The translations under genes were made by a program, and so were the position numbers. Positions 29,946 to 64,000 of a DNA stretch of 64,000 nucleotides are shown here, one piece after another (position 1 is the stretch's first letter; every line of letters starts with the position of its first letter). The notes under the pieces are model-generated. The model was not told the DNA's origin. It did no database searches and was given only the letters and a program-made list of their open reading frames with translations. Origin of the DNA: Linyphia triangularis (Eukaryota > Arthropoda > Arachnida > Araneae > Linyphiidae); contig OZ021732.1 in the NCBI GenBank assembly GCA_963978545.1, forward strand, positions 60,736,714-60,800,713, read 5' to 3'.

Positions 29946-29958
29946 CTAAAAGTGTTAG

Positions 29959-34721: not shown

Positions 34722-34986
34722 TGACTATTTTAGCCTCCAGAAAACTTTTTTTGGTAAGAAAAATATCGGTACTTACGTATTAACGCCACTGCAGCTACAG
34801 ATTTGACGGTTTTTCAGTGCCACCAATAAAGAGCAATCTTGTTGTTCGCACGCAGTTATCTTTTGGATTCCTTGTAAGTATAAAACTATAATTCCTTGTA
34901 AGTAATTAAAAACCGCCAAATCTGTAGCTGTGGTGGCGTTAATACGTAGGTACCAAAATTTCCTAATTGAGTATTTTAACCTCCAG
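34722..34986. repeat. hairpin element with 47-bp inverted repeats
   Basis: The arms at 34768-34815 and 34908-34954 are inverted copies with about four mismatches. They start GGTACYTACGTATTAACGCC and include CAGCTACAGATTTG. The hairpin is flanked by imperfect direct copies of ATTTTARCCTCCAG at about 34722-34740 and 34969-34986. The size (~187 bp) and structure fit a MITE or a foldback element. Confidence 0.75.
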
Positions 34987-42500: not shown

Positions 42501-42661
42501 ATGTCTAATGACAGAATAAATAAGTTTAAAGCTTTTTTTTTTTAAATATTAAAAAAATCCCACAACAAAACAATATTAACAAGCATATATGTAAGTGGGG
42601 CCAGGGGCCAAAAAAGTGAGGGGGCCCAGGCCCCCCTGGCCCCCTGCACCAGCCGCCACTG
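39558..42661. mobile_element. hAT-like element B, nested in A
   Basis: The termini are CAGTGGCGGCTCGTG (left) and CAGTGGCGGCTGGTG (reverse complement of the right end). A perfect 8-bp target duplication, CATCGCAC, lies at 39550-39557 and 42662-42669. GTGAGGGGGCCC occurs near both ends. The element is 3104 bp, of which 196 bp is a later SINE insertion with its duplication. Blocks of its interior align with element A: about 40310-40500 with 37020-37200, 40860-41080 with 38520-38720, 41940-42110 with 39300-39480, and 42150-42410 with 42670-42960. B is thus a diverged relative that inserted into A. No transposase frame survives. Confidence 0.93.
41367..41549 (+). mobile_element. tRNA-derived SINE, family I, copy 3 (inside B)
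   Basis: A full-length copy has a perfect 13-bp duplication, AAAATTTATTTTG, at 41354-41366 and 41550-41562. The A-box-like and B-box motifs are intact, and the tail ends CAACCAACCA. It is nearly identical to the copy at 29959, so it is likely a recent insertion and the youngest layer of the nest. Confidence 0.96.
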
Positions 42662-43543
42662 CATCGCACGCACACTCCAACTCAAGCAAAAATGACCATT
42701 CCATTCACTTGTCACTTCCACCCAGAGTAGAGGCATTTTAGTAATTTGCAACTCACAATGGTGCAATGTCACGTGCATGGGAGGGGACAGTATGCCCCAC
42801 AAGTTTTATTGCTTTGTGTCCTTAGTTTCAAATTCAAGGTCAAGAAAGAAGGGGTCGTTTTTGTTGAACTTCTGGAGAGAACGAAGGGAAACTTTTCTTG
42901 GTCCTAATTTAGCGATAGCTTCTTCATCGGAACTTCTTACAACCTCTGTAGAATTGCAGTAATGCTATTGTACTGATTTGATCAAAGCTTTTTTTTAATT
43001 AGGAATTAGGCATTTTATTTTCCAATTATAATTAAAGGTTCTTGTTTTTTTTGTTTTTTTGTTTAATATTTTTAGTGCATGATTTTTTGTACGTTTAGGC
43101 GGTGCGATGGCACCCCGATATTAAACCTGTATAATTTATTGCCCTCTGATCAAGAAGACAAGAAGTATACCTGCAGAATGCTAATTGGAATAAAAAACTT
43201 GCCAGTTATTGGTCCCATCTCCTACTCACAAATGAGAAAATCGTGCTGAAATTGAGAAATTTTTTAATGGTATTGTGAGAAATTTTTTAATTTGAGAATC
43301 ACACAAGGGATAAAGATTCGTTGACCGGTACATTGCATGTCATCACAATCGCGATCTACTCGTCCCCTCTCAAGCCTATTCCTTCTACGGATTGTGAAAT
43401 AAGGAGCTCGGTTAGGTGGCTTAAGAATCTGTATTAATGAAACATGAAAAATGTCAGAAAAAGCTTAATTTTGTTTACCCCCTTTAAATCCATCGATATT
43501 GATATTAAATAAAAAATAGATCTTACGAATATTAAAAAAATGT

Positions 43544-43580
<37 letters not shown>

Positions 43581-43675
43581 AATTTGGAGGAAACGGCCAT
43601 TCAAAAATTATTTTGACGAGATACATCATGGGGGGTGCGGTCGCACCCCCCGCACCCCCCCTAAATCCGCGCCTG

Positions 43676-44256
43676 ACCACATGATAGTGTTCACTTTTAC
43701 CAATGTTGTTTAAATATGAATCTTCCACACGAGTGTTCAATCTTGATTCTTGCCAATGTTGTTTCAAGACATACTTTCCAGAAAAACTGTTTCTACAGCA
43801 CTAGTTCTTGGGCTCAAGAACTATAGTGCTGTAAAAACAGCATTATGGGATGTGTGTCTTGAAACAACATTGGTAAGATTCAATATTGAATACTCATGTG
43901 GAAGATTCATGTTTAAACAACATTGGTAAAAGTGAACACTATCATGGTGGTAACAATGGGATGCATCCATGTTGAAACAACATTGACATTCAACGTGGAA
44001 ACCACATGGGCAAAAATGAACACTCTCACGTGGAAACAATGTGACAAATCCACGTTGAAACAATATTGACATTCAACATTGAAACCACGTGATATATCTA
44101 CGTTGAAACAACGTTGGCACACAACATTGCATCCATGCTCCTTTAAGTGAACACTTCCACTTGAAAACAACGTTGCAGTTCCACGTTGAAACAACATTGT
44201 GCATGTTGGTATTTAACGTTGACACCACATTGAAACAACATGGTTGCGTTGCTTGG
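43676..44256. repeat. iterated-motif foldback repeat, right block
   Basis: The outer part (43950-44256) repeats CACGTTGAAACAACATTG-like units about ten times. The inner part (about 43677-43950) is an inverted repeat centred at about 43813, with GATAGTGTTCACTTTTACC at one end and its complement at the other. Sequence left of element A (about 36800-36856, TTTTAACATGGGTGTTCC then ACATTGTTACCACATG) continues the left arm. It matches the complement of 43940-43990, so A landed inside an arm. The end GTTGCTTGGG mirrors CCCAAGCAAC at 31544. Confidence 0.7.
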
Positions 44257-44883
44257 GAAGCAGTCTGTTGAAAAATGCATTTTTGTGCAGAACGATACAA
44301 ACCACATCAAGACAGATGGGTGCAGTTTCTCCTAAGACTTTTAGAACCGAAATTATAGCTATCATTTGGATTACTATTATTATTTATTTTGCCTACTGCG
44401 TACCATCGTGCAATCCCGCGTTAAAAACTGAACCATAGAAAACGTTGTATGTTGACGTGTTAATACTGTTTCATGTATATATAAAAAAATCCTTAAATTT
44501 TGATGTTGTATTGAAGGCAGTTTTGGAAAACAATGCATTTGAAAGTTTCGTGCTAAATTAAATTGTATATATGGCCTATCCCTTCCCAGATTACGGGCAT
44601 TTCATCTTAAAAGTTACTGCTATTATGGGAGAACGTCAGAATGTTTCATTACCACATTTAAAGTCAAGATCATCGTCATGTAAGAAATATTTTACTCTTA
44701 CCCTTCTTCGTAGTTATCTTCATATTCTTTATTTCTCCTTAATCTTGAAAGTAATTTCTACTTTCCACTTCCCTTCTCATTAATAAAGTGTATGGTCCGG
44801 AAGCTGCAACGTGCTCTTCCGCTTTCGAATTCAATACGCAGCTCAACTTCAAAACAACATTCACGAGAATAGCAGCAATTAAT
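44257..44883. promoter_or_regulatory. 5' flank of the sushi-domain gene
   Basis: This region lies between the foldback repeat and the start codon and should contain the promoter and 5' leader. No clear TATA box or initiator stands out. From 44788 the reading frame is open into the ATG at 44884, but there is no earlier in-frame ATG, so translation most likely starts at 44884. Confidence 0.35.
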
Positions 44884-47800
44884 ATGATCAGTTTCGTGCA
44901 GGTAACTGTGCTTTTCGGAACGGTACTACTGCTCTTTCACACATCGATTTCAGCAAAATCAAAAGGTAAAAGTAAGTTTCTCAACCTTTTCTTGGATGGC
45001 GCTATTGAGGATGTTCCGCTATTTTTGTTATTACACAAGACGCGAAATATAAAATTTAGAATTAATATTGATTATTTTAAATTCTTTAAACTTATCGAGA
45101 TTCTGTAATGGCTTTCCACCAAAAAAAGTTTACTTCCAGTTTTTGCTATTATCTTGATCACGCAACGAGATAAGTTTTTCTATTTAATGATGAACAACAT
45201 GTCAAAAGTACCATTAAAGTAAAGCGATTGTGGTAACAACTTATGAGTTCTTATTGATTCTCTCACCATGATCAAATCATCACTTCAGCAGTATAAAAAG
45301 AAACGGAAATAAATTTTTCAATTATAACTAAAAAGAAAAAAAAGTGTAGTTTATTTAGCATATTGTATAATTTGTAATAATGTGTATCATTAGTCACTAT
45401 ACCTATTAAAAAAAAATGTTTATTATCATGCTATAATATTATTTCATTCCTTTTATCATTTCATTTTATATGAGAAATTTTGTGTATGTAAGCTTATTGC
45501 AATGCATACACAAAATCCTTGTGCTACAAAATCCTGGTGGTTTTCCTACTTCTCAAATAATAACACACTTTTATCATTTAAAGAAAATAGTAGCTCCTCC
45601 CATTACTGTGGAATATGCTTGTATTGTCATTATTTTATGAACTTTTAAATATTTAAAATTTCTTAAAACTAATATGGAGTATTGAACTGCCAAAAATTTT
45701 TCAAGGCGAAATGAAAATGTATTCTTCGTGTGTAAATTATTATAAAACAATTTGTAAACAAACAAGAGTTAGTTTGCAATATGTTAAAAACACATATAGC
45801 GATTAATATGTTTTCAAATATTTATTTTTATTCAAGTTCAGCATTAGATTAATAATAAAATAAGCAAATAGTTTCCTGGGTTGGATTTAGGAGGCATTAA
45901 TAACAACAAAGATCTTTTAAAAAAGAAATATTCAGTTATATTTAAAGTGATAACTTTAGAATAATCCTACTTCTATCTTTAAAGCAAAATCAAGTCTTCT
46001 TTTACAATAAAGTAAATGAAAAACTTTTAAGACTTGCATTAATTCTGGAATGGAAGCTATAAATAAAGAGTCTGTATTTAAAAATAAAAACCATCTTATA
46101 GTCTTTAAAATAGTATTCTTAATTATTTTTTTAAGGCTTTTAATATTAATTTAACATACATCAATATACAATCTAAAAGTGTTTTTTATAAAAACTGGAA
46201 TCAAAACTTTAATTTCGACATTTATTGTGGAAATATATGGCTTTTAATTAGATTAAAAAAATTTACTCGTAAATAAGTTCAAAATTTTAGATGTTTAATG
46301 AAAATACTATATCAATAACGATGATTCATGCATATTCTGGCTTAAAGGATGTGGATCTAAACATAATTATTAGTAGAAACAGACAGATTTGCACAAACAA
46401 ACGAAACAAAAAAAAAACCATCAGATTATCTATGGAAATGTTTGTCAAAATAATCTCTTAAAGTCACATGAAATTTATTTTTGATATAACATTCATGAAT
46501 CTAGCCTGAGAAATGACTTTCAAGTAGTAAAAATGAAATTACATTCTACATATACGTATTCCTCATTAGCTCAAACAGAAAAAAAAAATACTAATTTAAA
46601 TACATCCAAGATTATTTTGAAATTTTTACAAATATAGTCTCAGAGAAGACAATACTACTGATAAAAAGTAAATGTTTCATTTTCAGAAACGAGTTGGATT
46701 TTGACAGTCATCGTCACATGAGGGTATTGCTACACAGGCTTTAATTATAATACAACCAGTTAGAATTTCCTTTTTGAACTTTCAGAACTGTATTTGAATA
46801 TACCACTCGCGTTATAATTTGACGAATAATTATAATTTGTTTTTCTTCCATGTCGCAGCAAAAAAACATATTAACTAGGGGTTAGTTGAAGAAACAAGAC
46901 AGACGATAAATAAATGCAAGCGATAATCCAGTTCAGTACAGTAAATCATATCAACAAGACCTTCCATTTAACATATAACACACGTATGTAGTATTTGCAG
47001 TATTGTAGGGAATTTTGATTTGGGAAAAATGGTAGAGAAAGCTTTTGTTGTAGCTTCTCTTATAGTTTTAAGTAAAAGCTAAAAGTAAAAATAAATTGCG
47101 ATTCCCTTTCTTATGAGCATTGATATTTTTTAAATCCTTTATATTAACTACGATTTTGTGTGTGGGTGTGTATGTTTGTCGCTGCCGGGAAATATGCGGA
47201 GGCCTAATTAACCCACTTGCCATAATGCAATCGAGCTGAAACTTGGCCGGTAGATTCGATGTCGAGGACAATGCATTCTACCAAATTTTGGGGTCCTGTC
47301 ACTCTCACCTGTCACTCAAACCTGTCACTCTCACTAAAGGTGGCTTTTAAACACGCTTCTATAATGGCTTCGAAATACAATAAACTCTATTTAATCGATC
47401 ATCGTTGAAACTCTTTCCTGTTGCCAAAATTGTTAACTTTTACTCAAGTTCTATTATCCAGACATAAAGTTTAATTCAAACATGTTCAATTTGGCAATAT
47501 ATAACGACTGAAACCTTTCCCTATTAAGGTTGACGAGACAAAATTTTGGGAGGGCTAATGAACCCATTCTTCGTCTTTCAAACCAGCTGAATCTTGGCAA
47601 ATAGACTTGTTGTAGTTGACAATGTATTCAATCAAGTTTTTGGGGCAAAAAGGAAGTTGGTAAATAGCTCGGAATGAATCTTTTGTTCTTAGTGGTCAAA
47701 CACAATAAAAACTCGATCTGAGCTCAAGAAGTTGCAATTGCACATAAAAATTGGCACTGCATATAAAGGATTTCTATTAAAAACTTTGTTTTTTTGAGTT

Positions 47801-49114
47801 ATATTATTAATTTTTAATTTTCCCGTTGGTTTTGTTACCCCCCTTCCCATTGACTTTCAACTAGACTACGATCTCTATTTTCTCACGTATACTTCTTAAA
47901 TATCTTGTATATTTTTTCTAGAGGCTATTTTTTTTTTTATGACAATCCCTTTTCTTCTCTATATACAAAACCAAAATTGATAAATGAATACCTATTTAAA
48001 GGTTAAGATTTCTGAAGAATAGTTTATTTAAAATAGCACATTGTGTTATTTGTTTAAAAGCCAAAGTTAAATTTTTTTATTTTGGTAGTCTATTGAAGAA
48101 GGCTCTGTGTAAAGGGTATTTTGGTACTCAATAAAAAGGGGACTCTATGTAGGAGATGCATTGACTTGGCCCAGCAATGACATCTTCTACCATAGTACTT
48201 TAGTACTTTAAGAAGAACTCATAGTAAGGGTCATTTCCTACACTCGTTGTATTTCATTTTTCTTGACCCGTTCATTTAGAAACTACTTTGTATAAAACCT
48301 TGAAATTTGGTGAGTAAGTACGAAAATGACCTCTTAATGAACTGACATAAATTAAAAACTTGAAAATAGTCTAATACATTTTATTTTATAAATGAATAAT
48401 AAAAAAGCAAAAGGGTTTCAAATATAAAATAAAATATATGTTATTTTCGAGTTTTTAATTAATGAGATTTAATTAAGTGATCATTTTCGTCATACTCACC
48501 AAATTTATAGTAGTTTCTAATTGGACCTGGTCAGGAGATTGTAACATAACGAGTATAAGAAATTATCCTTACTAGGAATACCTCTTAAACTATAATAAAA
48601 CAATGTATTGTTGTTTTAAAGATGTAGTTCGTCCCTTTAAAAAATTCTCTTTATTATTTGTTAATAAATTGAACTTAAAGGTTAAAGATGTTACTAGTGT
48701 GATGGAAGTACGGAATACGATAAATCAATAGACTGACTATTTACACGAGCAATGTCGTGCCTATGTCTGCTTTCTAACTCAAGTTTCATTAAGTCTTTCA
48801 GCAATAATAATGTCACTCTGGTGAACTTTTTTTTTAAAGTAATTATTCAAAGAAATTTTAACTGCGCATGTTGCGCACTGGCCACTAGTACTAGTTAATA
48901 ACTCTTAACTGTATTTTCCCTTTTCGATTAGCACGAGTGCAGACTTGTCAGCCGTTCCCTTACGCTACTCTGGAACACGGGAGAATCACGTCTTCAGGAA
49001 AACAGAAGTACACTTTCTCCTGCGACCCTAACTACTTTTTAGCATCCCCAAGGCAGGTGCGATGCTGGAGAGGGAAATGGTCATCCACTCGACAACCCCT
49101 GTGCATCAAGTCCG
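44884..49114 (+). CDS. secreted sushi/CCP-domain protein, 5' part (two exons)
   Basis: Exon 1 (44884-44971) encodes a signal peptide. It starts MISFVQV, has a hydrophobic core TVLFGTVLLLF and a small-residue region HTSISA, with likely cleavage after residue 24. It ends at a perfect donor, GTAAGT, in phase 1 (an alternative donor six bases earlier keeps the frame). After a 3960-bp intron, exon 2 (48932-49114) has acceptor CTTTTCGATTAG and donor CCG then GTGAGT. It is phase 1 at both ends, the usual format of a sushi domain exon. It holds one full domain with cysteines at about residues 35, 60, 74 and 87 and the conserved tryptophan at 79 (RCWRGKW), plus a YTFSCDPNY core. Such domains mediate extracellular binding in complement-like, adhesion and clotting proteins. 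There is no stop codon, so the gene continues downstream. The precise family member cannot be named. Confidence 0.8.
44972..48931 (+). other. intron 1 of the sushi-domain gene
   Basis: The intron is bounded by GTAAGT and TTCGATTAG. It is AT-rich. It contains two related segments, AATCGAGCTGAAACTTGGCC at about 47228 and CAGCTGAATCTTGGCAAATA at about 47584. Each is followed by a GACAATG(C/T)ATTC block, and both are related to the complement of 14050-14100, so they are pieces of a dispersed repeat. Nothing else is recognised. Confidence 0.7.
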
Positions 49115-52100
49115 GTGAGTGTCCCAGAATTATATGATCTGAAGGTACTACTAGTTAAGTAAGAACTCATAGTCTGTTGGAAAAATAATTATTTGTATGG
49201 ACTATTTTTTTAATAGAAAGAAAAACACATAAATTAATTTAAAATATCTATTGCACGAAAAAAATTAATAGTTCTTGTCTTGCATCTTTAAAAAAATGTA
49301 TTAAACGGTGCAGTAGTGTGGACTGTCTTAAGAACAAGTCATGTCCGAGTAAAAACAAGAATTTATTTTAGATTCGAAGAAGAAGAAGTGATGTTTGGCG
49401 AGAGGAAAAAGAGCAAAGTCTCAAAATGTAAAAATGTCTAAAGCCTTTTGCCGAAGAGAAATATTTGACTTTTATAAACAAGAGACAAGCGCAAAAGAAC
49501 TGGTTTGCGGCGGTCTAAACAAGATCCGACCGGATTCAATGCGCAACTCACTAATTCCGAAAAACACTAGAAAATACTTAAACGATAAGAGAAGTACTAA
49601 TGGAAATACATTACATATATATTAAAACCTCGAGACCAAATTTATCTGACTTATAGCGCTTTGCTTACATTCTATATTTCAATCCAAACAGCTTTTGAAA
49701 TGGATGTTGGGTAGTATAACCACTACAATAAAACTACTTTTAAAGAAATTCAGTAAAAACAGTTACTTAATTTAATTTTTATCTAAATAAAAAATACGCA
49801 TCAAATTTAAAATAAATATATGAATTACACTTAAATTTAGAAAGATATCAGAAAAATCTTATTTAAAAATAATTTTCCTAGTCTTGGATTCAAAAGTAGG
49901 GGTTTTACCGCAACATCAAATGATGAAATATCCAATGTTGCCTTCCAGATTTTCAGGTAAAGAGGAATGAGTGTCCTGTTCTTTGTATTCTGTGATATGA
50001 AACTCTACGATCATCAAACACCTTTTCAATAACGAATTCACAATCACCTAGATCTTTCAACTTGAAGTGTCTTTAAGGTTTCGATTTATTCTCTTTAATT
50101 TTTTCCCCTTATTACCTTTACCCCACTTTTTTAGTGTTCAGAATTCTAAAGTCAAAAACTAAACACTTTTACAATTACTTCGTTGTTTGTCTGTCCCTGC
50201 GTCTCTCTGAAACACTATACGTTGAATAACGGAGGAACTAAATAGAATATTTAAATTAAATTTTGCGAAAAAAACAACAACAAATAATTCATAACAGATT
50301 ATTCATATGTGGGTCAAAATCACGAAACGTGAATATATGGCTCATCAGGACTTCGATTTTGAAATTTTTTGTAAACAAGTTTGTTATTCCTTATATCTTT
50401 TAATCAACTTATTTTCTATAGGAATTCAAAGTTTGCACGCTAAATTCTAATGTAAGAATTTTTTTTTTCTGCAATAGGGTATTTGACACATTTTCAAAAT
50501 ATGTTCTAAATAAAGCGTATGTCCAAATTAAAAGACACGTATTTTTTCTTTTTCCAAAATAATGCCGCAAAGCGCCAAAAATTGCATTTTAAAATGCAAG
50601 TAGAAGCCCCGCCCCTAAAACGCTGCTCAAAAATCCATCTGAGTGTGACGTCACTATATTCGATAAACAGCATCGTGAATAAGTTTCAAGCTAGATTGTG
50701 TAACAGGGTGAATTTTATATGCTTACCGAAAGTCGAAAGATAATTTAAATTTGATTAATATTTTAAATCGGTTACTCAGACTGAGCGAAGCCAAATGTTT
50801 AAAATAAGTTTTATTGATTTGTAAAATTCAAGTTTATTAAAGTTGGAGTTAGTAGAAATGTACGTATTTCAAATGTGCCAATCGTGTCATTGTTTTCCAA
50901 TAAAACAATATCTACGTTTGTAATTAAAAGATGGCAGCACTAAAAGTGTGGTTGTGTTTTAAAATAATAGATGGCAGCACCACAAAATTAGACAGTAGGG
51001 TGATTCGAAAAAAAGTAATTTTTTATTTTTGAAACGCATGAGGTGAAAAAAGTTGATACACATCTTTATATGAAAAACTGTAAAAAAAATTTAAAAAAAA
51101 ATAATATCTTCCGATCGCGTATTCACCTCAAAGTTTGAAGTAAATACAAAAAATAACTATTTTTCCTAAATTTTTTTATAATTCTAAACGTTATATATTT
51201 GAAAGGCAATAGTTTGCAATGCATAGTGAAAGGGTGGTATAACACAGGAAAACACTATTTCATGCATTTTTAAAACATATATTAATAATTAAAAATATTC
51301 AAAAATACATTTTTTTGTTTAAAAAATGATTTTTCTATAAAATTGATACTAACGTTACTTTTTACATATTTTTTTTTTTTTTAAATTGTTTTATTTACTT
51401 CAAGCATTCACTTCAAAGTTTTGAATAAATATAAAAAATACCCTTTTTCCATCAATTTGTAGAATACACCAATCACTAAATTATCGAGGTACATTAGTTT
51501 ATATTGTGTAGAACTTGGGGAAAAAAGATCAAATTAGTAATTATTCAATAATAATCGTTCTCGCATAACCTTTGAAATATTGATAAGATTGTGTTTTGGC
51601 GGGTTTTAATCTGGGTGGCCTTTCTCGTGGTGCCTTCTCTTCCTTTGAAGCTCATAAACTTACTTGGATCAAAACGCATCCTAACTTATTCATTGGATCA
51701 TAACGCACGTGGCTCTGATTGGATCTGCCATAAATACTGATTGGAAATAATCTGACAGACCAAATTGCACGCTGGGAAACCACTACATTGGGATATATGC
51801 CTTTTATACTCCAATGAACTACCATTCAGACACATATTTAAACACGTAGGTAGTACTACAATTGGACAACATCTTTCAGTGAGATAAAAAAAATTGAAGA
51901 ACCTTAAAAAATTTCCCCTGACTGATTTTTTACGTGTTGAATGTTTAATTCCTCAACTTGAGATGAAAGTACTGAACACAACTCAGTTATATCTTCTTGA
52001 TATTATTACATTAAAAAAAAAATTCTGAAGGACCTAAGAACATATATGTGGCAATTCGATTGTCTCGATACCTCCCTGAATATTTACTGCAAGTTTTAAA

Positions 52101-52900
52101 CTCAGTTATTGGACGAAATGCTTCCTTTCCTCACTAAAAAAAATTTCATTTCGGCAATGATTTTGTACGCAAAGAGATATGTAAAAGAACTGAGGCGTCA
52201 GGTTCTGAAATCGCGAGAACTTTCCTAGAGAAAGACTATCAGGCATTTCAAGACAACTAAACTTAACTTTATTGTAGGTATCCTGTCTGCATTGAGTGGG
52301 CATAATTAATTGGAATGCTCGTAATAGGACCCCTCCTTTGTTAAGAGAAACAAACGGACATTACTTAGTAGAGACTGGCGCATCCGAGGTAGCACAGCTG
52401 TATTGGTGGAAACTGGGAAGACTGGAAAATTGACTAGTTCCAAAATACACGATTTTTTAACAAACAAACCAGTCAAAACCACCACATAGTTTTTTCTCTC
52501 ATAAATATAATATCCCAAGTTTAAAACTGTACATCGGCGTATCAAAACCTCTTCTATATTTTATCCAGAATTGGGCGAGATTGGCTAATATTGCTTCCAA
52601 CGACCGATTCACAACGTTTCACATCGGGATTGGCCTATGTCTGGGGATATTGGCCAGCGTATTTGTGTTACTATGGACCATTGAAATCAGACTTCAACTC
52701 GTTTCCTTGTCACTCACAAGCTGTGGAACGCTTATGTAGAGACAAGACAAAAGTGGGTGGCGCTGACGCAAAAGACGTTAGGACAGCACTTTTTTTTTTT
52801 AAAGATCCGTAATGCCCGACTTTTCAACAAAAATTTCCTTCAAAGTGCATCACTGGGATAGAAAGTTCGAGAAAAAAGTGAACAAAATGAATAATAGCAG

Positions 52901-52904
<4 letters not shown>
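49115..52904. other. spacer or intron with two unusual patches
   Basis: No exon could be confirmed. The frame at 49395-49625 and the patch at 50560-50740 (CCCCGCCCC box, perfect TGACGTCA at 50646-50653) are less AT-rich. The patch at 52560-52800 carries three ATTGGCY sequences (minus-strand CCAAT boxes). It also has a 73-codon frame including GLAYVWGYWPAYLCYYGPLK. No protein family is recognised. GATGGCAGCAC is repeated at about 50931 and 50971. Confidence 0.4.

Positions 52905-52937
<33 letters not shown>
52905..52937. repeat. 33-base A run
   Basis: A pure A tract is followed shortly by the GC-rich repeat block that starts at 52979. It could be a retroelement tail, but no element body is recognised upstream. 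Confidence 0.95.
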
Positions 52938-52938
<1 letters not shown>

Positions 52939-52978
52939 AAGAAAAGTAGTTAGAAAGTGGGGCTCCTGGGCCATGGCG

Positions 52979-53052
52979 GTATGCGGTATGGTATGGTATG
53001 GTATGGGGGCGTGACCGGAAGGGGGCGTGACCGGAAGGGGGCGTGACCGGAT
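52979..53052. repeat. GGTAT pentamer run and 16-bp G-rich repeat x3
   Basis: About four GGTAT units (52986-53005) lead into three direct copies of GGGGGCGTGACCGGAA at 53005, 53021 and 53037. A CCGGAAGT-like (ETS-type) phrase recurs downstream at 53093 and 53108. This is the most GC-rich part of the window. Confidence 0.95.
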
Positions 53053-53053
53053 A

Positions 53054-53790
53054 TGACGTCACAGGAAGTGATATCACAGGATATGCCGTCACCGGAAGTC
53101 GCATGACCGGAAGTGGAGTGGAGTTGTTCCCCTCCTGCTATTGTTTTAGTTTCATTATAAGCTGTTTGTGTATGACGTCACAGTAGGTATGACGTCATAA
53201 TGTGTTTTATATTAAAGTTTAGAGCGATGGCAACACTTTTTAGTTTCGGTTTATCTAACAGACGGAGTTGAGTTGTTCTAGGACTGCTTGTAAACGAATA
53301 AGTTAGAGTGATAGGTTTTTATTGCATGACGTCACAGTAGGTATGACGTAATAATTTGTTTTATATCAAAGTTTAGAGGGATGGCAACACTTTTTAGTGT
53401 CGATTTACCTTTCAGGTGGAGTTGAGTTGTTCTAGGACTGCTTGTAAATGAATAAGTTAGAGTGATAGGTTTTTATTGCGTGACGTCACAGTAGGTATGA
53501 CGTCATAATGTGTTTTATATCAAAGTTTAGAGCGATGGCAACACTTTTTAGTTTCAATTTACCTTTAAGATGGAGCTGAGTTGTTTTAGGGCTGCTTCTA
53601 AACGAATAAGTTAAGAGTGATAGATATTTTTACTAGTGACGTCACAGTGGGTATGATGTCATTATATGTTAAAATTTACGTTTTAAGTGATGATAACACT
53701 AGATATATACCAAATTTAGTTTTCAGGTGTTGGCAACGAGTTCTGATCGGTCAGCTAAATGCTCGCTTGTGACTGATAAGTTTTAAACAT
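53054..53790. repeat. CRE-bearing tandem array, 154-156 bp units
   Basis: Units begin at 53173, 53327, 53481 and 53637, each with TGACGTCACAGTRGGTATGA followed by a second CRE or near-CRE 17 bases downstream. Perfect TGACGTCA palindromes lie at 53054, 53173, 53190, 53327, 53481, 53498 and 53637. Near-matches (TGACGTAA, TGATGTCA) lie at 53344 and 53654. The rest of the unit includes GCGATGGCAACACTTTTTAG and GAGTTGAGTTGTTCTAGG. TGACGTCA is the known binding site of CREB/ATF factors. The first three units are near-identical and the fourth is diverged. A partial unit end precedes at 53113 and another lies at 54436-54510. Confidence 0.9.
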
Positions 53791-54240
53791 GTGACTAAAA
53801 GTTAATTTCTGATTGACTGTTTGGTTTTCTAGCGAGTTACTTACATATCCTTTAATCAAGTTAAAATACCTGCAACAAAGTTACACAAATAAAAAAAAAA
53901 AAAAAAATGTTACATTTGAAAAGTTAATAAAAGTTAAGGCCATTTGCTAAGGGTCAAAAAGAACCCTAACCCCGAGCTACACGTGACATTTCAATATTTT
54001 ACCAAACAATTGTTAAAATATCGACTATCGGACGTTGCCTTCATGGTAACTCATCTACCCACCCCCCTTCCCTAACTAATTTTGAATAAGTTAAGACTTT
54101 AGAATTACAATTAATAAATTTTGAAAAATTATTTAATAAAGGTGAGGACCCACCTCCAGCCCGATACCTCTTTTAGGAAGAATTGGTACCGCCTCACTCC
54201 ACCCTAACAAAAAAAAAATCTGTGAAAAAAAAGCACGAAG

Positions 54241-54540
54241 TATTAAACACGTCTTTCACACTCAGGTATCCAAGTAGAAATGGCGAGACGGCAACAGGTA
54301 GCGTCTATATATGAGGGGTGATCACGTGACTTCACCGACCAATCAGGTTTCACGGTAGAGGGTGCTACTGACTATCGACCCGTCAGAAGGGAGGGGAGCG
54401 AGACTAGGGATGTTTCAACACGCTTCAACGCGTTTGCGAGTTGAGTTGTTGTGTAACGATCTTGCTTGAAACAGTTAAAGTGATAGATAATTTGTTCGTG
54501 ACGTCATAGTGTAGCGAATGGGTTTTTAGCGTAGACAGTT
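54241..54540 (+). promoter_or_regulatory. promoter-like segment next to the CRE array
   Basis: Within 45 bases it holds a TATATA box (54305-54312), a CACGTG E-box (54323-54328) and a CCAAT box (CCAATCAGG at 54339-54347). A unit-end fragment of the array with a perfect TGACGTCA follows at 54499-54506. The CCAATCAGG phrase recurs in the palindrome arm at 56251. Orientation and any target gene are unknown. Confidence 0.3.
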
Positions 54541-54644
54541 GTTGCAATTGGAGTAATTATGAAATTTATTAAATATAAAGATAATATTTAGTAATAATTA
54601 TCAGATTTTATTATTATTATTATAAAAAATAAACTTATAAAAAA

Positions 54645-56220
54645 AAAAGTGAACGTGAAAATTTACTTTGCGAATAAAAATCATGTCTTTAAAATGTGTA
54701 CGAATATCACTAAATAAGAGAAAAAAGTAACATACTTAAACTCTTTAAAATAAATAACTTTAACATTAACGTAAAAAATTTACTTTTCACATAAAAATCA
54801 CTTTAAAATGAGTAAAAATATCGCTAAATAAGAGAAAAAAAGTAACTTACTTAAAATTTCTAAGATAAATATTTAACCTTTACTCGAAAATTCCCTTCAT
54901 ATATAAAAATCACGACTTTAAAATATGACATGCAAGAGAAAAGTAACGTACTTAAACTTTCTACGACAAATAACTTTAACATTAACGTAAAATTTTACTT
55001 TACACATAAAAATCCCGACTTTAAAATATGTAGAAATACCGCTAAATAAAAGAAGAAGAAAAAAGTAACATACTTAAACTTTGTACGACAAATAACTATG
55101 ACATTAACGTAAAAAATTTTCTTCACATATAAAAATCACGACTTTAAAATGTAACGTGTAAGAAGAATTAGCATACTTAAAATTTCTACGACAAATAAAT
55201 TTAACCTTTACGCGAAAATTTACTACATATATAAAAATCATGTATTTAAAATATCGCTGAATAAAAGAAAAAAGTAACATACTTAAACTTTCTACGACAA
55301 ATAACTTTAACATTAACGCAAAAATTTACTTTACACATAAAAATCACGACTTTAAATTTGACATGCAGGAGGAAAGTATAACATACCTATAATTTCTACG
55401 ACAAAGAATTCAAACATTGCCATTCATGTCTTTAAAATGTATAATGACAACTCTAATTTTTAGAAAAAAGAAACACTAAAAATTTACAAGGCAAAGAATT
55501 TAAAATTGAACGTGAAAATTAACTTCACATGTACAATCATACTCTTATATCAACGATAAATAAGATAAAAAAGAAGCTCTAAAAATTTATAAGGCAAATA
55601 ATTTAAATAATACGCGAAAATTTACCACACATATAAAAATTATGTCCTTCAAATGTGTAAGAATAACGCTAAATTAGGGAAAAAGAAATACTAAAAATTT
55701 ATAAGGTAAGGAATTGAAACAATATGCGAAAATTTATTTCACGCATAAAATTTTTATCTTTAAAATGTGTAAGAATAATGCTAAATTAGAGAAGAAAAAA
55801 AAAAAAAATAACATACTTAAACTTTCTTCGACAACAATTTAAACAATACGCGACATTTTCATACACAATTATTTTCTTAGGTTAATGTTAAATAATGGGA
55901 AATTTAACAGAATAAAAATTTCAAAGATAAAGAATTTTAACCTTTACACGAAAATTTACCTCACAAAAATATCATATCCTTAAACTTTAACGTGACAATT
56001 TACTCTTCATATACAATTAAACTCTTAGGTTAATGTTAAATAAGAAAAAAAAAAAAATATACTTAAAATTTCTAAGATAAACATAACGTAAAAATTTCGT
56101 ATCATATGTTTAAAATGTAACATATAAGAGAAAAAAAACTAACATACTTGAACTTTCTATAGCAAAGAATTTAAGCATTAGCGTAAAAATTCACTTTACA
56201 TATAAAATTCACATCTTTAA
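54645..56220. repeat. diverged ~105-120 bp satellite, about 15 units
   Basis: Units repeat the order CGYRAAAATTTACTTYACA, then CATATAAAAATCACGACTTT, AAAATGT, an AAATAAGAGAAAAAAGTAAC block, ATACTTAAACTTTCTACG and ACAAATAACTTTAACATTAA. Unit length varies through small indels and A-run changes. The last partial unit (56182-56220) runs into the palindrome arm and is mirrored at the right window edge (63980-64000). The satellite may therefore itself be part of the inverted duplication. Confidence 0.85.
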
Positions 56221-59200
56221 ATGGGAAGATAAGCAGGTGACGGTAATTAGCCAATCAGGGTAGCGGTAGGTGATACGCCATTCGCCGGCATTTTTAGATC
56301 GGAGGATGAGTCACGCTAAAACTTGTTGGAACAGGTCGGGAGATTTGTACAGCAAGAACAACAGCATCGACGCGCAAGCAGCGGGTGATGCTGTGATGTG
56401 TCAGCAGGTCTTTGAGATTATCGTTTTCCTACTTTGCCGTTTTCATAATGAAATGTTTGTGAAAACTTGGAATGAATAAAGTGGATTTCAAAGACATATT
56501 AGTAAGTGAAGGTAGAATTCGCATGGACTTTCTTCCAAAAAGTAAGATTCACTTGGAGAATTTAAGATCATTTCTACTTGAAAACTTTTCTATTATTTAA
56601 AACATTGAATATTGTTCAAACTCAGTGGGATTATATGCTACAATACGGGTAAAACTTAACAAAATTGTTACATAGAAGAAAAATAGTAAGAGATTTAAAA
56701 TAAATATTAGATATAGATACTCCAAAGAAAAAATTTCACCTCTACTTTTCAATCGGAAAATCAATACAAGTTGGAAATTTATGTTACTTCAAGAAAGACT
56801 TAGACAATTTACTTTGTAATAATATACGGTAAGGTGTCGTATTAACTCGTGCAATACATGCTGACTAAGGTTTATTTTACTTGAAAGGTGAATTGGGGGG
56901 AAATATTAAATAAATTGTAGATATTAAATACATTATAGATATGCATTCAAGTTTTGAAAATCACCTGCAAGACTTTTAAAACATCTTAAGATAAATTGAA
57001 AGAAACTTTTTATACTCTGAAAGGAAATCACAAGTAATTTAGTTAACTTTTTTCATGGTAACACTCATATTCAACGACATGTTTTTAAAATTTAACCTTC
57101 TTTACATGATAATAGTTATAAATTTTTTCAATCTCAGATGCGATATACTATTATTTCTAACATATATGTTACGAATTGTGTAAAGTTTTTAAAAGAGTAT
57201 ATGCAAATCACCAATCAGAAACATAAAAATCTAACATCAATCAAACACACTAAAATAATAAGATATTTTCCTTAGTAGAAATAGTTAACTACTCATGTGA
57301 TGGAATGTACTTAGAAAATTTAAATACTGAAAAAAGTTTGCTAGGCAAACTTAAAGAATATATATTTTTTTTCTTGTGAAAAACTAGCATAAATTTGAAA
57401 AATATAGAGTTTGTTACTACGTAAAATTGAACATCATCTGGACAAACTAAATTATACATGAATTTTTTTTTATTTGAGAGGTGCTGACAATATATCATTA
57501 ATACAGAGATTTTTAACTTCCACCCATAATTTCTAAATAACTTATACATAAATTTCAGAAAACTGAAACGGAATGTGTTTTACAAGACGCTTATTTTGTA
57601 AGATGAATATTCAATATTAATATAACTGAGCAAAGTTCATTACGGAAAAAACTTGTAAAAGATACTTATATTTTGAAAATAGTTTGAAATATCCTTTTAA
57701 ATTTATGAATGCTCGCTTTCGAAAGACACAAATAAAACTGATATTACACATGATAATTAACACATGCATAACATTAATCAAACAAAGTGGAATTTTTATT
57801 GCTTGTGACCGATAACTTTTCAGTGAAGCAGAACTTACATAGGAAATTTGTGCAAACTTTTTCAACTTTTAAACCAAGTATTATGTAAAATTATAAATTA
57901 CGATAGGAAATAGCACACTTCAGAATCGGAACAAGTCTTCTAGTTAAGCTAAATTTATTTCTCAAGGAATTGAAAGCATACCAGACAAGTCCTTATCATT
58001 TCGCATCTTTTCTCATGTTGCAAGAAGACATACTTTGTAAAAGATCGTCGTTGCACTTAACAAAAATCAGTAAAAATAAATGTATTTTCTATGGCAAAGA
58101 TAAAACTTCACAACTTAATTACTGAAATTTAGCTAAGTTGCATATGGTTTATTCACATAACTCGCATATGCTTCGAATGTTGAAATATATTTGTCAGTTG
58201 AAATCAAACTAATCGAAAATAAATGCTACCTACATTTTCAAGTCGGAAATTACTATTAAATAAACTTTACATGTAAAACATTGTCATGTTAAAAAGAAAA
58301 ATCTACAAAAATGTAAATGATAATTTTACTGTTGGTACATAAATGATGAATAATTTATGATTTTATTCTAGGCAAACGTTTTATTGTCTAACAGAGAACT
58401 TAAACTTTAGCAGAAAAATAAAAAAATACAATTTTTATATCCTATCATACTTGTCGAAAATTGAATTTATTAGCTGTTGTAATAGATTTTTATTGTCCAA
58501 ATTTCTATAGTTTTTCTTCCCGGTGCAATAAAATTAAGTTCATGTGTAATAAGTAGGTTTTTTTGATGAATCTTATAAATTTAATGAAATTATTATGACC
58601 TAAGAGATTGAGTGAACTGAATAAATCAATGATGTAAATTTAAACAGTGACTTGAACTGATACATACTATAACTGTAAAGAAGTATGACAAAGTGATAGA
58701 TGAAGTAAAAATAGAAGTTGAATGAAATGTGTTGAAAAAAGTTGAAGACGACAAGAAATTCGTAATTGAGAATTATCATTGACTTATATTAACTTCGTTT
58801 TTCTTGCTTATGACAAGAAAATACACTCTTTCTTATTAAGAACCAACTTGATATCTTATCATAGAATGACAATGATGAAATATCTATACATTAAAAAAAA
58901 AAATACCAAACTTAGACATAGCAAATTTCTTGAAATTCATGTATAATGTGAGAAGTTTTACTGGAAATATAGAAAATACAACATTGAAAGATGTGAATGT
59001 TTCGAAGTACTTTATCAGAAGAAGAAAAAAAAATGCGCTGAGGTCCGTTACAAAAATTTTTAGGAGAAAGTTTAAACAAAATTTAAAATCAAACATGCTT
59101 TTAAGTGGGAACACATATATTAAAACTATAGCACATTAAACAATTTATATTATGTCATCTCGGTATCAAACTGAATAACATGAAAAACAACGGCAAACTG

Positions 59201-60093
59201 AATAAACATGATAATTATCAATATATGTGGAAAAGTTTCCTTTTTTCACATATAAAAAAATAACACATTGACATACGTTAAGATCACGAAACATGCGTAA
59301 TCATATGCCGATAAGAGCAACCAATGTTGCGGGGAGATATTCACTTGATGGTCAATATCCCATGAATAAATTGATTGATTGAATTTCTAATGCTAATTCC
59401 AATAGTATTCCATGTAACTTCAACTTGATATGTTACACCATAGATATATTTATTTTTCAAATATATTGACTTTCAAAAAATCATCCTTCAATATAAGAAT
59501 AATCATAGTAAGAATAAAAGAAAAGATACTAAGCATTGATTTAAAGTGTATTTATTTCGACTTAGCAACAAATCATATGCTTGAAACGAAAATTGCTTCG
59601 AACCAAAGTATAACTATCCAATTTCATTGATTCCTACAAGAAAATTTTTCTCATCTAGTAATTGAATTTTTTTCTCATACACATTATAAGTGTTGTCCAA
59701 TCAGGTGTAGAATAGTTGAAGATATCCGACCTCTTTCTAAATATTAATAAGTCACTGTTGAAAAACTTATAAAAATTTCAATTTAAACTTAAAGGTTTTT
59801 TTTTTTTTATATATATATATATATATCAAAGAATGTTTTCAAGTCAATATATATATTTAAATACGAAAATTTATTCACTTCAATAAATGTATGTTTAAGT
59901 TATAAAACTTGTCGTATGTATTGAAAAATTGTAACTTTTCGTCTTATTCGTATAAATCGATAACTTATATCACTAGTTCTTCATCAATTAATCTCCTAAG
60001 TAAATCTTTCAAAGGTAAAAACATACATATAGCTTTGTCTTTGTAACAAGTTAAATTTTACATGTTTCATGTGAAAGTTACAAAATTTTATAT
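56200..60093. repeat. giant palindrome, left arm
   Basis: Each base at position x pairs with position 120200 minus x across the whole arm, with only a few 1-bp indels that cancel. The outer segment (56200-57380) showed no differences from the right arm by direct reading. About 30 differences lie in 57381-58770, and one (59594 versus 60606) in 58771-60093. The arm is AT-rich, with no recognised gene except a short frame at 56306-56479. The visible arm is limited by the window edge, not by loss of symmetry. Confidence 0.97.
56306..56479 (+). CDS. 57-codon frame in left arm, unknown
   Basis: The frame starts ATG and encodes MSHAKTCWNRSGDLYSKNNS, then IDAQAAGDAVMCQQVFEIIV, then FLLCRFHNEMFVKTWNE and a stop. 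The composition is balanced, unlike the rest of the arm. A CCAAT box (56251-56255) precedes it, and an AP-1-type TGAGTCA overlaps the start (56307-56313). The frame is open upstream to 56270. An identical mirror copy lies at 63721-63894. It could be a real small protein, a first coding exon, or a non-coding leader; there is no family match. Confidence 0.3.
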   Translation: MSHAKTCWNRSGDLYSKNNSIDAQAAGDAVMCQQVFEIIVFLLCRFHNEMFVKTWNE

Positions 60094-60106
60094 GTTTTTC
60101 ATGAAA
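60094..60106. other. palindrome centre (unpaired 13 bases)
   Basis: Pairing breaks at 60094/60106, 60097/60103 and 60098/60102, leaving TGTTTTTCATGAA as the loop. The loop itself contains TTTTCATGAAAA, a short palindrome offset by 1.5 bases. There is essentially no spacer between the two arms. Confidence 0.95.
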
Positions 60107-63100
60107 ATATATAAAATTTTGTAACTTTCACATGAAACATGTAAAATTTAACTTGTTACAAAGACAAAGCTATATGTATGTTTTTACCTTTGAAAGATTT
60201 ACTTAGGAGATTAATTGATGAAGAACTAGTGATATAAGTTATCGATTTATACGAATAAGACGAAAAGTTACAATTTTTCAATACATACGACAAGTTTTAT
60301 AACTTAAACATACATTTATTGAAGTGAATAAATTTTCGTATTTAAATATATATATTGACTTGAAAACATTCTTTGATATATATATATATATAAAAAAAAA
60401 AAAACCTTTAAGTTTAAATTGAAATTTTTATAAGTTTTTCAACAGTGACTTATTAATATTTAGAAAGAGGTCGGATATCTTCAACTATTCTACACCTGAT
60501 TGGACAACACTTATAATGTGTATGAGAAAAAAATTCAATTACTAGATGAGAAAAATTTTCTTGTAGGAATCAATGAAATTGGATAGTTATACTTTGGTTC
60601 GAAGCGATTTTCGTTTCAAGCATATGATTTGTTGCTAAGTCGAAATAAATACACTTTAAATCAATGCTTAGTATCTTTTCTTTTATTCTTACTATGATTA
60701 TTCTTATATTGAAGGATGATTTTTTGAAAGTCAATATATTTGAAAAATAAATATATCTATGGTGTAACATATCAAGTTGAAGTTACATGGAATACTATTG
60801 GAATTAGCATTAGAAATTCAATCAATCAATTTATTCATGGGATATTGACCATCAAGTGAATATCTCCCCGCAACATTGGTTGCTCTTATCGGCATATGAT
60901 TACGCATGTTTCGTGATCTTAACGTATGTCAATGTGTTATTTTTTTATATGTGAAAAAAGGAAACTTTTCCACATATATTGATAATTATCATGTTTATTC
61001 AGTTTGCCGTTGTTTTTCATGTTATTCAGTTTGATACCGAGATGACATAATATAAATTGTTTAATGTGCTATAGTTTTAATATATGTGTTCCCACTTAAA
61101 AGCATGTTTGATTTTAAATTTTGTTTAAACTTTCTCCTAAAAATTTTTGTAACGGACCTCAGCGCATTTTTTTTTCTTCTTCTGATAAAGTACTTCGAAA
61201 CATTCACATCTTTCAATGTTGTATTTTCTATATTTCCAGTAAAACTTCTCACATTATACATGAATTTCAAGAAATTTGCTATGTCTAAGTTTGGTATTTT
61301 TTTTTTTAATGTATAGATATTTCATCATTGTCATTCTATGATAAGATATCAAGTTGGTTCTTAATAAGAAAGAGTGTATTTTCTTGTCATAAGCAAGAAA
61401 AACGAAGTTAATATAAGTCAATGATAATTCTCATTTACGAATTTCTTTCGTCTTCAACTTTTTTTCAACACATTTCACTCAACTTCTATTTTCACTTCAT
61501 CTATCACTTTGTCATACTTCTTTACAGTTATAGTATGTATCAGTTCAAGTCACTGTTTAAATTTACATCATTGATTTATTCAGTTCACTCAATCTCTTAG
61601 GTCATAATAATTTCATTAAATTTATAAGATTCCTCAAAAAAACCTACTCATTACACATGAACTTAATTTTATTGCACTGGGAAGAAAAACTATAGAAATT
61701 TGGACAATAAAAATCTATTACAACAGATAATAAACTCAATTTTCAACAAGCATGATAGGATTTAAAAATTGTATTTTTTCGTTTTTTCTGCTAAAGTTTA
61801 AGTTCTCTGTTAGACAATAAAACGTTTGCCTAGAATAAAATCATAAATTATTCATCATTTATGTACCAACAGTAAAATTATCATTTACATTTTTGTAGAT
61901 TTTTCTTTTTAACATGACAATGTTTTACATGTAAAGTTTATTTAATAGTAATTTCCGACTTGAAAATGTAGATAGCATTTATTTTCGATGAGTTTGATTT
62001 CAACTGACAAATATATTTCAACATTCGAAGCATATGCGAGTTATGTGAATAAACCATATGCAACTTAGCTAAATTTCAGTATTAAGTTGTGAAGTTTTAT
62101 CTTTGCCCTAGAAAATATATTTATTTTTACTGATTTTTGTTAAGTGCTACGAGGATCTTTTACAAAGTATGTCTTCTTGCAACATGAGAAAAGATGCGAA
62201 ATGATAAGGACTTTTCTGGTATGCTTTCAATTCCTTGAGAAATAAATTTAGCTTAACTAGAAAACTTGTTCCGATTCTGAAGTGTGCTATTTCCTATCGT
62301 AATTTATAATTTTACATAATACTTGGTTTAAAAGTTGAAAAAGTTTGCATAAATTTCCTATGTAAGTTCTACTTCACTGAAAAGTTATCGGTCACAAGCA
62401 ATAAAATTTCCACTTTGTTTGATTAATGTTATGCATGTGTTAATTATCATGTGTAATATCAGTTTTATTTGTGTCTTTCGAAAGCGAGCATTCATAAATT
62501 TAAAAGGATATTTCAAACTATTTTCAAAATATAAGTATCTTTTACTAGTTTTTTCAGGAATGAACTTTGCTCAGTTATATTAATATTGAATATTCATCTT
62601 ACAAAATAAGCGTCTTGTAAAACACATTCCGTTTCAGTTTTCTGAAATTTATGTATAAGTTATTTAGAAATTATGGGTGGAAGTTAAAAATCTCTGTATT
62701 AATGATATATTGTCAGCACCTCTCAAATAAAAAAAAATTCCTGTATAATTTAGTTTGTCCAGATGATGTTCAATTTTACGTAGTAACAAACTCTACATTT
62801 TTCAAATTTATGCTAGTTTTTCACAAGAAAAAAAATATATATTCTTTAAGTTTGCCTAGCAAACTTTTTTCAGTATTTAAATTTTCTAAGTACATTCCAT
62901 CACATGAGTAGTTAACTATTTCTACTAAGGAAAATATCTTATTATTTTAGTGTGTTTGATTGATGTTAGATTTTTATGTTTCTGATTGGTGATTTGCATA
63001 TACTCTTTTAAAAACTTTACACAATTCGTAACATATATGTTAGAAATAATAGTATATCGCATCTGAGATTGAAAAAATTTATAACTATTATCATGTAAAG

Positions 63101-64000
63101 AAGGTTAAATTTTAAAAACATGTCGTTGAATATGAGTGTTACCATGAAAAAAGTTAACTAAATTACTTGTGATTTCCTTTCAGAGTATAAAAAGTTTCTT
63201 TCAATTTATCTTAAGATGTTTTAAAAGTCTTGCAGGTGATTTTCAAAACTTGAATGCATATCTATAATGTATTTAATATCTACAATTTATTTAATATTTC
63301 CCCCCAATTCACCTTTCAAGTAAAATAAACCTTAGTCAGCATGTATTGCACGAGTTAATACGACACCTTACCGTATATTATTACAAAGTAAATTGTCTAA
63401 GTCTTTCTTGAAGTAACATAAATTTCCAACTTGTATTGATTTTCCGATTGAAAAGTAGAGGTGAAATTTTTTCTTTGGAGTATCTATATCTAATATTTAT
63501 TTTAAATCTCTTACTATTTTTCTTCTATGTAACAATTTTGTTAAGTTTTACCCGTATTGTAGCATATAATCCCACTGAGTTTGAACAATATTCAATGTTT
63601 TAAATAATAGAAAAGTTTTCAAGTAGAAATGATCTTAAATTCTCCAAGTGAATCTTACTTTTTGGAAGAAAGTCCATGCGAATTCTACCTTCACTTACTA
63701 ATATGTCTTTGAAATCCACTTTATTCATTCCAAGTTTTCACAAACATTTCATTATGAAAACGGCAAAGTAGGAAAACGATAATCTCAAAGACCTGCTGAC
63801 ACATCACAGCATCACCCGCTGCTTGCGCGTCGATGCTGTTGTTCTTGCTGTACAAATCTCCCGACCTGTTCCAACAAGTTTTAGCGTGACTCATCCTCCG
63901 ATCTAAAAATGCCGGCGAATGGCGTATCACCTACCGCTACCCTGATTGGCTAATTACCGTCACCTGCTTATCTTCCCATTTAAAGATGTGAATTTTATAT
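60107..64000. repeat. giant palindrome, right arm
   Basis: Reverse complement of the left arm. It is still in perfect register at the last base of the window (64000 pairs with 56200), so it continues beyond. The open frames found here are mirror copies of those in the left arm. Differences such as 62744 (G, where the left-arm base implies A) are confined almost entirely to 61430-62820. Confidence 0.97.
63721..63894 (-). CDS. 57-codon frame in right arm, mirror copy
   Basis: It is identical at nucleotide level to the frame at 56306-56479, in opposite orientation, with the same CCAAT box (63945-63949) and TGAGTCA flank. The two copies point toward each other across the palindrome. If they are real they would be a convergent identical gene pair. 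Confidence 0.3.
   Translation of the reverse strand: MSHAKTCWNRSGDLYSKNNSIDAQAAGDAVMCQQVFEIIVFLLCRFHNEMFVKTWNE

What the first reader, a model, noticed from the sequence alone, without database searches (positions are those of the whole stretch)
56200..64000. Giant inverted repeat (arms at least 3.9 kb) with almost no spacer
Direct reading shows the right arm is the reverse complement of the left with fixed register (x pairs with 120200 minus x) from 56200 to 64000. The unpaired centre is only ~13 bases. The structure runs off the window, so the true arm may be much longer and could include the satellite and the CRE array. Palindromes of this size are rare, because they are unstable during replication. 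Known examples include sex-chromosome ampliconic palindromes and amplification intermediates.
Basis: seen in the sequence. Interest (0 to 1): 0.9.

Follow-up and report, generated by a model that had tools for sequence, protein, structure and literature searches.

The report
Giant gene-less palindromic jumping DNA
The huge mirror-image DNA at the end of this window is one copy of a dispersed mobile element of about 14-15 kb, without recognisable genes, that is a palindrome from end to end, and its ends look like those of virus-like Maverick (Polinton) transposons.

Summary
The inverted repeat is real and longer than reported. In the assembly (1.35 Gb, unnamed) it runs from window 52945 to 67255, beyond the window: two 7.15-kb arms around a 25-bp centre, unrelated flanks, and a 6-bp target-site duplication (AAGAAA). 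It is not a fold-back artefact or a unique amplicon. At least 40 places on 12 contigs match the centre, each on both strands. In ten copies with both ends located, end-to-end length is 14.07-15.47 kb, and 9 of 10 have exact 6-bp duplications. The ends read 5'-AGTAGTTAGAAA, matching the (AGT)2//(ACT)2 motif published for Mavericks/Polintons. No gene was recognised. In the six copies read in full, arms of one copy agree at 99.4-99.9%; different copies agree at 90-98.5%. Yet 28 of 30 centres read keep one asymmetric 25-mer, so the palindrome is inherited rather than remade at the loop. Best reading: a gene-less, self-complementary Maverick-type parasite, moved by another element's machinery, its arms kept alike by correction in a hairpin or by gene conversion. 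No helper was found: the genome search for DNA polymerase B did not complete. Mobility is strongly supported; the Maverick link and hairpin step are inferred.

The parts
52939..52944 (+). Left copy of the 6-bp target-site duplication AAGAAA (right copy lies just after window coordinate 67255, outside the window)
   Evidence: TSD 6 AAGAAA at the exact element ends
52945..64000 (.). Whole palindromic element; continues past the window end to window coordinate 67255 (G000:C13:60789658-60803968), 14311 bp
   Evidence: self reverse-complement match of the locus, 99.47% over 14318 columns; (length)
52945..52956 (+). Element terminus AGTAGTTAGAAA; (AGT)2 as in Mavericks/Polintons
   Evidence: only exact copy in the window; end motif in PMC8097293
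53005..53670 (.). Subterminal tandem arrays: 15/16-bp units, then 154-bp units, with TGACGTCA (CRE) sites
   Evidence: tandem repeats; 8 CRE sites in each own arm, 53054-54499 in the left arm; 2 CRE sites in window 1-52944
54650..56222 (.). Degenerate ~105-bp satellite array inside the arm
   Evidence: (nhmmer with the unit)
56223..60088 (.). Inner part of the left arm, no gene recognised
   Evidence: (six-frame Pfam of 56200-60100: only a sub-threshold DUF285 match, E 0.012)
57404..58766 (+). Tract where the left arm differs from the right arm (27 of 28 substitutions, 5 of 6 indels); the right arm here equals both arms of the C4:75.70M copy
60089..60113 (.). Centre TATATGTTTTTCATGAAAATATATA; 5 bases (60099-60103) unpaired in the fold
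60114..64000 (.). Inner part of the right arm (arm continues to 67255 outside the window)

Best explanation
It is one copy of a dispersed family of mobile elements, without recognisable genes, that are palindromes from end to end (about 14-15 kb, arms 7.0-7.8 kb). SHOWN: dispersed copies, precise ends (AGT)2//(ACT)2, 6-bp target-site duplications, no recognisable gene in the window's copy, arms of one copy far more alike than arms of different copies, one inherited asymmetric centre. INFERRED: it is a parasite of a Maverick/Polinton-type element. A helper's protein-primed DNA polymerase would start at the (AGT)2 ends and its integrase would insert the product with a 6-bp duplication. Because the element is self-complementary, any displaced single strand folds into a ready-made 7-kb duplex hairpin with both origins side by side. 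Mismatches between the arms are corrected in that hairpin, or by later gene conversion, and correction stops a few bases from the loop, so the odd centre survives.
For: At least 40 places on 12 contigs; all 40 scored match over practically the whole 401-base probe on both strands (only 40 of 833 candidates were scored). End-to-end length 14.07-15.47 kb, mean 14.75, sd 0.39, in ten copies with both ends located (six read through, four by their ends). 6-bp TSD in 9 of those 10; chance of one by base composition about 6e-4. Ends AGTAGTTAGAAA: in own, c8, c12 and c10 the limit of the palindrome itself fell on this motif; in the other six the motif was used to find the end, and the TSD is the independent check. 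This matches the commonest vertebrate Maverick end motif, which comes with 6-bp TSDs (PMC8097293: passages, and section 7); PMC10045372 (passages) also gives 6 bp for Polinton. Arms 99.43-99.90% alike within a copy against 90.1-98.5% between copies, gaps not counted, in 6 copies. CRE counts are equal in the two arms of 4 of 6 copies and vary between copies from 0 to 15. 25-mer centre identical in 28 of 30 centres read. Within-copy divergence (5 copies) is 0.07-0.33 of between-copy divergence (4 copies) in ten bins along the arm, as if arms started alike. No Pfam match at cut-off in six frames of the window's left arm.
Against: No helper element was found: searches of the genome for the Pfam family PF03175 (DNA_pol_B_2) did not complete. 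None of the genes that define Mavericks was recognised, and Pfam was run on the window's left arm only. The longest ORF exceeds the longest of 20 base shuffles in 2 of 6 copies (c8 137 aa against 114, c12 122 against 117), so a short unknown gene is not excluded. 6-bp TSDs also occur in other superfamilies (IS3EU, Dada: recalled, not looked up). The end motif was published for vertebrates; the host here is unnamed. Arm differences are clustered against a uniform model in all 6 copies (P 0.0123 or less), and own's tract shows exchange with another copy, so conversion after insertion takes part and a single clean start is not proven. CRE counts differ between arms in c4b (11/13) and c5 (8/14). 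Size constancy may reflect recent common descent instead of packaging. One of the ten copies (C3:62.69M) has no TSD, unequal arms and unlike termini.
Confidence: 0.62

Rival explanations
1. A palindromic cut-and-paste element (foldback/MITE-like) mobilised by an unrelated DDE transposase that makes 6-bp duplications; the arms are homogenised only after insertion by ordinary gene conversion between neighbouring arms.
For: 6-bp TSD and lack of recognised genes do not single out Mavericks; own shows a 1.36-kb tract that most simply comes from conversion or recombination with another copy; subterminal tandem repeats recall foldback elements; arm differences are clustered against a uniform model in all 6 copies (P 0.0123 or less).
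Against: (AGT)2//(ACT)2 plus 6-bp TSD is the published Maverick signature. Foldback arms are reported at 1-2 kb at most (PMC1952172, passages). No edge effect in arm homogenisation once compared with between-copy divergence; part of the clustering follows from fast-changing arm extremes.
Confidence: 0.25
2. Assembly or library artefact: fold-back reads or two haplotypes joined head to head.
For: Fold-back reads are common in some long-read libraries (PMC12870357, Results and Discussion: about 0.55-0.6% of ONT genomic reads; virtually none in its PacBio HiFi data); raw reads of this genome were not available.
Against: 40 of 40 scored places match on both strands around one centre, and 28 of 30 centres read are the same 25-mer; 9 of 10 copies with both ends located have TSDs; flanks of own, c8, c12 and c10 are unrelated left and right. 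An artefact would give unrelated centres and mirrored flanks.
Confidence: 0.02
3. A one-off chromosomal palindrome (ampliconic or amplification product) that later became repeated.
For: Size and arm identity resemble ampliconic palindromes (recalled).
Against: Places on 12 contigs with exact ends and TSDs in 9 of 10 copies tested.
Confidence: 0.02
4. Remade by snap-back: a nascent strand folds at the TTTTC-CAT-GAAAA hairpin and copies itself, as in snapback defective viral genomes, so the second arm is new in each cycle.
For: Explains near-identical arms in each copy and equal CRE numbers in both arms of 4 of 6 copies; snapback genomes are described for AAV (PMC8235507, abstract start in a search listing).
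Against: By reading, copying past the loop would give GAAAACATATA, a symmetric centre; 28 of 30 centres keep GAAAATATATA opposite TATATGTTTTC.
Confidence: 0.09

Closest known systems
Maverick/Polinton self-synthesising transposons (Polintoviruses)
   Same: Ends 5'-(AGT)2//(ACT)2-3', 6-bp TSDs, similar total length (12.7-24.6 kb for intact vertebrate elements, PMC8097293; here 14.1-15.5 kb).
   Different: No polymerase, integrase, ATPase, protease or capsid gene recognised; inverted repeats are 7.0-7.8 kb and make up the whole element instead of 46-1447 bp.
Foldback (FB) transposons
   Same: Long inverted arms with subterminal tandem repeats, mostly non-coding.
   Different: Arms several times the 1-2 kb maximum cited in PMC1952172 (passages); no middle segment; FB TSD length (9 bp) is recalled, not looked up.
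Anopheles gambiae 2Rj 14.6-kb inverted-repeat insertions (PMC1952172, passages)
   Same: Similar total size, no coding capacity, arms over 99% alike.
   Different: 5.3-kb arms with a 4-kb spacer, not flanked by short TSDs (8-bp sequences in inverse orientation are discussed), found at the two breakpoints and not as full copies in the reference genome; here no spacer and at least 40 places.
Snapback (self-complementary) defective genomes of AAV (PMC8235507, listing only)
   Same: Defective double-stranded genomes in a snapback configuration.
   Different: Those are virion DNA of a parvovirus; these are integrated, with TSDs and Maverick-like ends.

Membership tests
Maverick/Polinton | 6-bp target-site duplication | tested here: met
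   9 of 10 copies with both ends located
Maverick/Polinton | End motif (AGT)2//(ACT)2 or (AG)3//(CT)3 | tested here: met
   The palindrome's own limit falls on AGTAGTTAGAAA in own, c8, c12 and c10; in six further copies the motif was used to find the ends, and 5 of those 6 have a TSD exactly there. Motif from PMC8097293
Maverick/Polinton | Protein-primed PolB, retroviral-like integrase, ATPase, capsid genes in the element | tested here: not met
   No Pfam match at cut-off in six frames over the own left arm; longest ORF in six copies 93-137 aa. So it is not an autonomous member; at most a non-autonomous derivative.
Maverick/Polinton | Helper with the same ends in the genome | not tested
   Genome-search requests for PF03175 and for the end pattern did not complete
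Foldback transposon | Long inverted arms with tandem subterminal repeats around a spacer | tested here: inconclusive
   Arms and tandem repeats present, but no spacer and arms of 7 kb
Assembly fold-back artefact | Flanks mirror each other, no precise ends, no other copies | tested here: not met
   Unrelated flanks with TSD; 40 places

The most novel reading that the evidence does not exclude
A heritable satellite of a virus-like transposon whose entire genome is one self-complementary palindrome: it carries no genes, keeps to a helper-like length (perhaps filler for packaging), replicates by a protein-primed polymerase through a 7-kb hairpin, and uses that hairpin to keep its two arms identical.
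Probability: 0.35. Interest if true: 0.88.

Novelty: new variant of a known kind. Interest (0 to 1): 0.74.

Why it matters
Long perfect palindromes with no spacer are expected to be unstable: PMC1952172 (passage) cites a rise in recombination of up to 17,000-fold for a perfect palindrome of 1-kb repeats in yeast. Here a genome carries at least 40 palindromic places, and the six read in full have 7-kb arms that are 99.4-99.9% alike. That gives many natural replicates for asking how a eukaryotic genome tolerates, copies and homogenises giant palindromes. If the Maverick link holds, it would also show virus-like transposons being parasitised by gene-less, self-complementary satellites.

Tried and rejected
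Rejected: fold-back or haplotype artefact; ampliconic palindrome (same calls); a protein-family or RNA-family explanation (the microRNA matches are below their gathering scores and follow from the hairpin); matches in phage records (none). Edge effect in arm homogenisation: looked real until compared with between-copy divergence. The arm as a continuation of the satellite: inconclusive (the arm gave more weak matches than a shuffled arm, but other parts of the window gave stronger single ones). Protein search with the ORF at 41084-41494 gave nothing. A first arm comparison misplaced a gap pair and over-counted differences; one search replaces it. Literature searches. Those listings (up to 25 rows each, open-licence library only) showed no paper on a fully palindromic transposon of this size, and the exact phrases for a non-autonomous Polinton or Maverick gave no paper; most subscription journals are not held. 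Papers opened but not relied on: PMC13265396 (outline and abstract), PMC6431247 (passages), PMC2836005 (passages).
Full report
Observation. The finding is in the sequence. At the register x <-> 120200-x, 3482 of 3900 positions pair without gaps, against at most 1473 at the 20 other registers tested. With gaps, 56200-64000 matches its own reverse complement at 99.03% over 7808 columns. The start 56200 is simply the mirror image of the window's last base. Folded as one DNA strand, 60020-60180 forms one long stem with 5 unpaired bases at the tip, z-score -22.9 against 200 shuffles.

Extent. The window is G000:C13:60736714-60800713 of a 1.349-Gb, 369-contig assembly without a name. Fetching the right flank shows one palindrome from window 52945 to 67255, 99.47% over 14318 columns. 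Its arms take in the CRE array and the satellite. Just outside lie unrelated flanks and the duplication AAGAAA.

Dispersal. A 401-base probe of the centre matched 80 times, which is 40 places on 12 contigs, each on both strands, at 95-100% identity; only 40 of 833 candidates were scored, so 40 is a lower bound. Nine further copies were fetched at +-10 kb. Five of them (c8, c12, c4b, c5, c10), and own, show both ends; in the other four (c4a, c14, c1, c2) both ends were not found in the fetched span, c4a and c2 because another copy seems to be inserted in an arm and c1 because of a 3.6-kb insertion. For ten more copies only two 841-base end stretches each were fetched: four showed the motif at both ends, five at one end, one at neither. 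So ten copies in all have both ends located: end-to-end length 14.07-15.47 kb, mean 14.75 kb, sd 0.39 (the four were not read through). Nine of ten have an exact 6-bp target-site duplication: AAGAAA, ATTACT, ATGGGT, AACGTT, TTCCTC, TGTGAA, ATGGGT, ATTGTA, AGTAAA. The tenth (C3:62.69M) has unequal arms, unlike terminal modules and no duplication, as a recombinant would. One of the nine, c5, also has unlike terminal modules and unequal arms (about 7.09 and 7.62 kb) but keeps its TSD.

Family signature. In own, c8, c12 and c10 the palindrome's own limit falls on AGTAGTTAGAAA; in the other six the motif was used to find the ends, so only the TSD next to it is independent there. Intact vertebrate Mavericks most commonly carry 5'-(AGT)2//(ACT)2-3' ends and have 6-bp duplications (PMC8097293: passages; section 7). 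PMC10045372 gives 6 bp as the Polinton length (passages). That is two published Maverick features met. The genes are not: six-frame Pfam scans of the own left arm found nothing at cut-off (for 56200-60100, for 41201-56200). The only sub-threshold match inside the element is DUF285, E 0.012; weak Sushi and DIP2-like matches lie outside it. The longest ORF of the six full copies is 93-137 aa; in four of six it is within the range of 20 base shuffles, in c8 (137 against 114) and c12 (122 against 117) just above. Other copies were not scanned with Pfam. It is therefore not an autonomous Maverick; whether it is a derivative moved by one is inference.

Arm homogeneity. In the six full copies the two arms of a copy agree at 99.43-99.90%, while arms of different copies agree at 90.1-98.5% (gap columns left out). 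CRE counts match between arms in own (8/8), c8 (0/0), c12 (15/15) and c10 (10/10), and differ in c4b (11/13) and c5 (8/14); between copies they range from 0 to 15. In ten bins along the arm, within-copy divergence of the five copies other than own is 0.07-0.33 of the between-copy divergence of four copies, without the rise at both extremes that raw counts suggest. This fits arms that start alike at insertion and then collect mutations. Against a purely clean start, the differences are clustered against a uniform model in all six copies (P 0.0123 or less); part of this follows from fast-changing extremes, part may be later conversion.

The window's own copy. Outside the 25-bp centre its arms differ by 28 substitutions and 6 indels, 27 and 5 of them between 57404 and 58766. 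There the right arm is 100% identical to both arms of the copy at C4:75.70M, while the left arm is 96.6-98.5% like the arms of the nine copies compared. Most simply, the left arm has taken in a tract from another copy that was not read. Outside that tract the 7.14-kb arms differ by one substitution and one 2-base microsatellite indel, so this insertion is recent or was recently homogenised.

The centre. Of 40 places, 30 centres were read: 10 and 20. In 28 the 25-mer is TATATGTTTTCCATGAAAATATATA in one or the other orientation; own has one change and L036 two. By reading, one strand of the common form can fold as TTTTC-CAT-GAAAA with a G opposite a T just outside; only own's version was folded by a program. 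If the second arm were remade by folding at this loop, the G would be copied into a C and the centre would become symmetric. It has not. So the palindrome goes back to one ancestor and is inherited whole, and the homogenising process stops a few bases from the loop.

Mechanism. I think most likely a Maverick-type helper supplies integrase and protein-primed polymerase; displaced strands fold into 7-kb hairpins, in which mismatches between arms are corrected. Shown: dispersal, ends, TSDs, no recognised gene, paired arms, inherited centre. Inferred: the helper, the hairpin and its repair. The narrow length range, similar to Mavericks (12.7-24.6 kb in PMC8097293), would fit a packaging limit but also recent common descent. 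The helper search (PF03175) and the end-pattern search did not complete by the genome machine, which is the main gap.

Comparison. Foldback elements share long arms and subterminal repeats but are cited with arms of 1-2 kb at most; the Anopheles 2Rj insertions have 5.3-kb arms, a 4-kb spacer and are not flanked by short TSDs (PMC1952172, passages). Snapback AAV genomes (PMC8235507, listing only) show that snapback defective genomes exist. My searches listed no fully palindromic transposon of this size, within an open-licence library and the rows shown.

Noticed in passing
window 43676-43951: A smaller through-centre palindrome (276 bp, 87% identity), perhaps a hairpin-type MITE, next to GTTGAAACAACATTG-like repeats.
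   Followed up: partly
window 48204-48592 and 34761-34961: Two older-looking through-centre palindromes at about 70% and 69%, so inverted structures without spacer of several ages sit in this window.
   Followed up: partly
window 12540-12793 and 13078-13319: Inverted repeat, 93% over 254 columns, with a 284-bp spacer; perhaps a short transposon with long inverted ends.
   Followed up: no
window 29768-30118 (+) and 41084-41494 (-): Two ORFs whose peptides look like opposite readings of one short repeat, perhaps a tRNA-derived SINE (the SINE idea is recalled, not tested).
   Followed up: no
window 27388-27623: 59 copies of TAAA, 95% matching.
   Followed up: no
G000:C14:109683701 and 109694049: Two palindrome centres only 10.35 kb apart, closer than one element length, so one or both may be truncated or recombined.
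   Followed up: no
L011-L012 (C4:75.70M) and L027-L028 (C2:59.95M): Copies of the element apparently inserted into arms of other copies, judged from element ends inside a palindrome.
   Followed up: partly
L013-L014 (C8:54.21M): A copy with the same ends and centre but a different subterminal region without any CRE site.
   Followed up: partly
element termini, bases 13-22: Variable terminal modules (for example GTGGGGCTCC, ATGACAGTCC, TTGGGCATCC) differ between copies but agree at both ends of 8 of the 10 copies with both ends located; c5 and C3:62.69M differ.
   Followed up: partly
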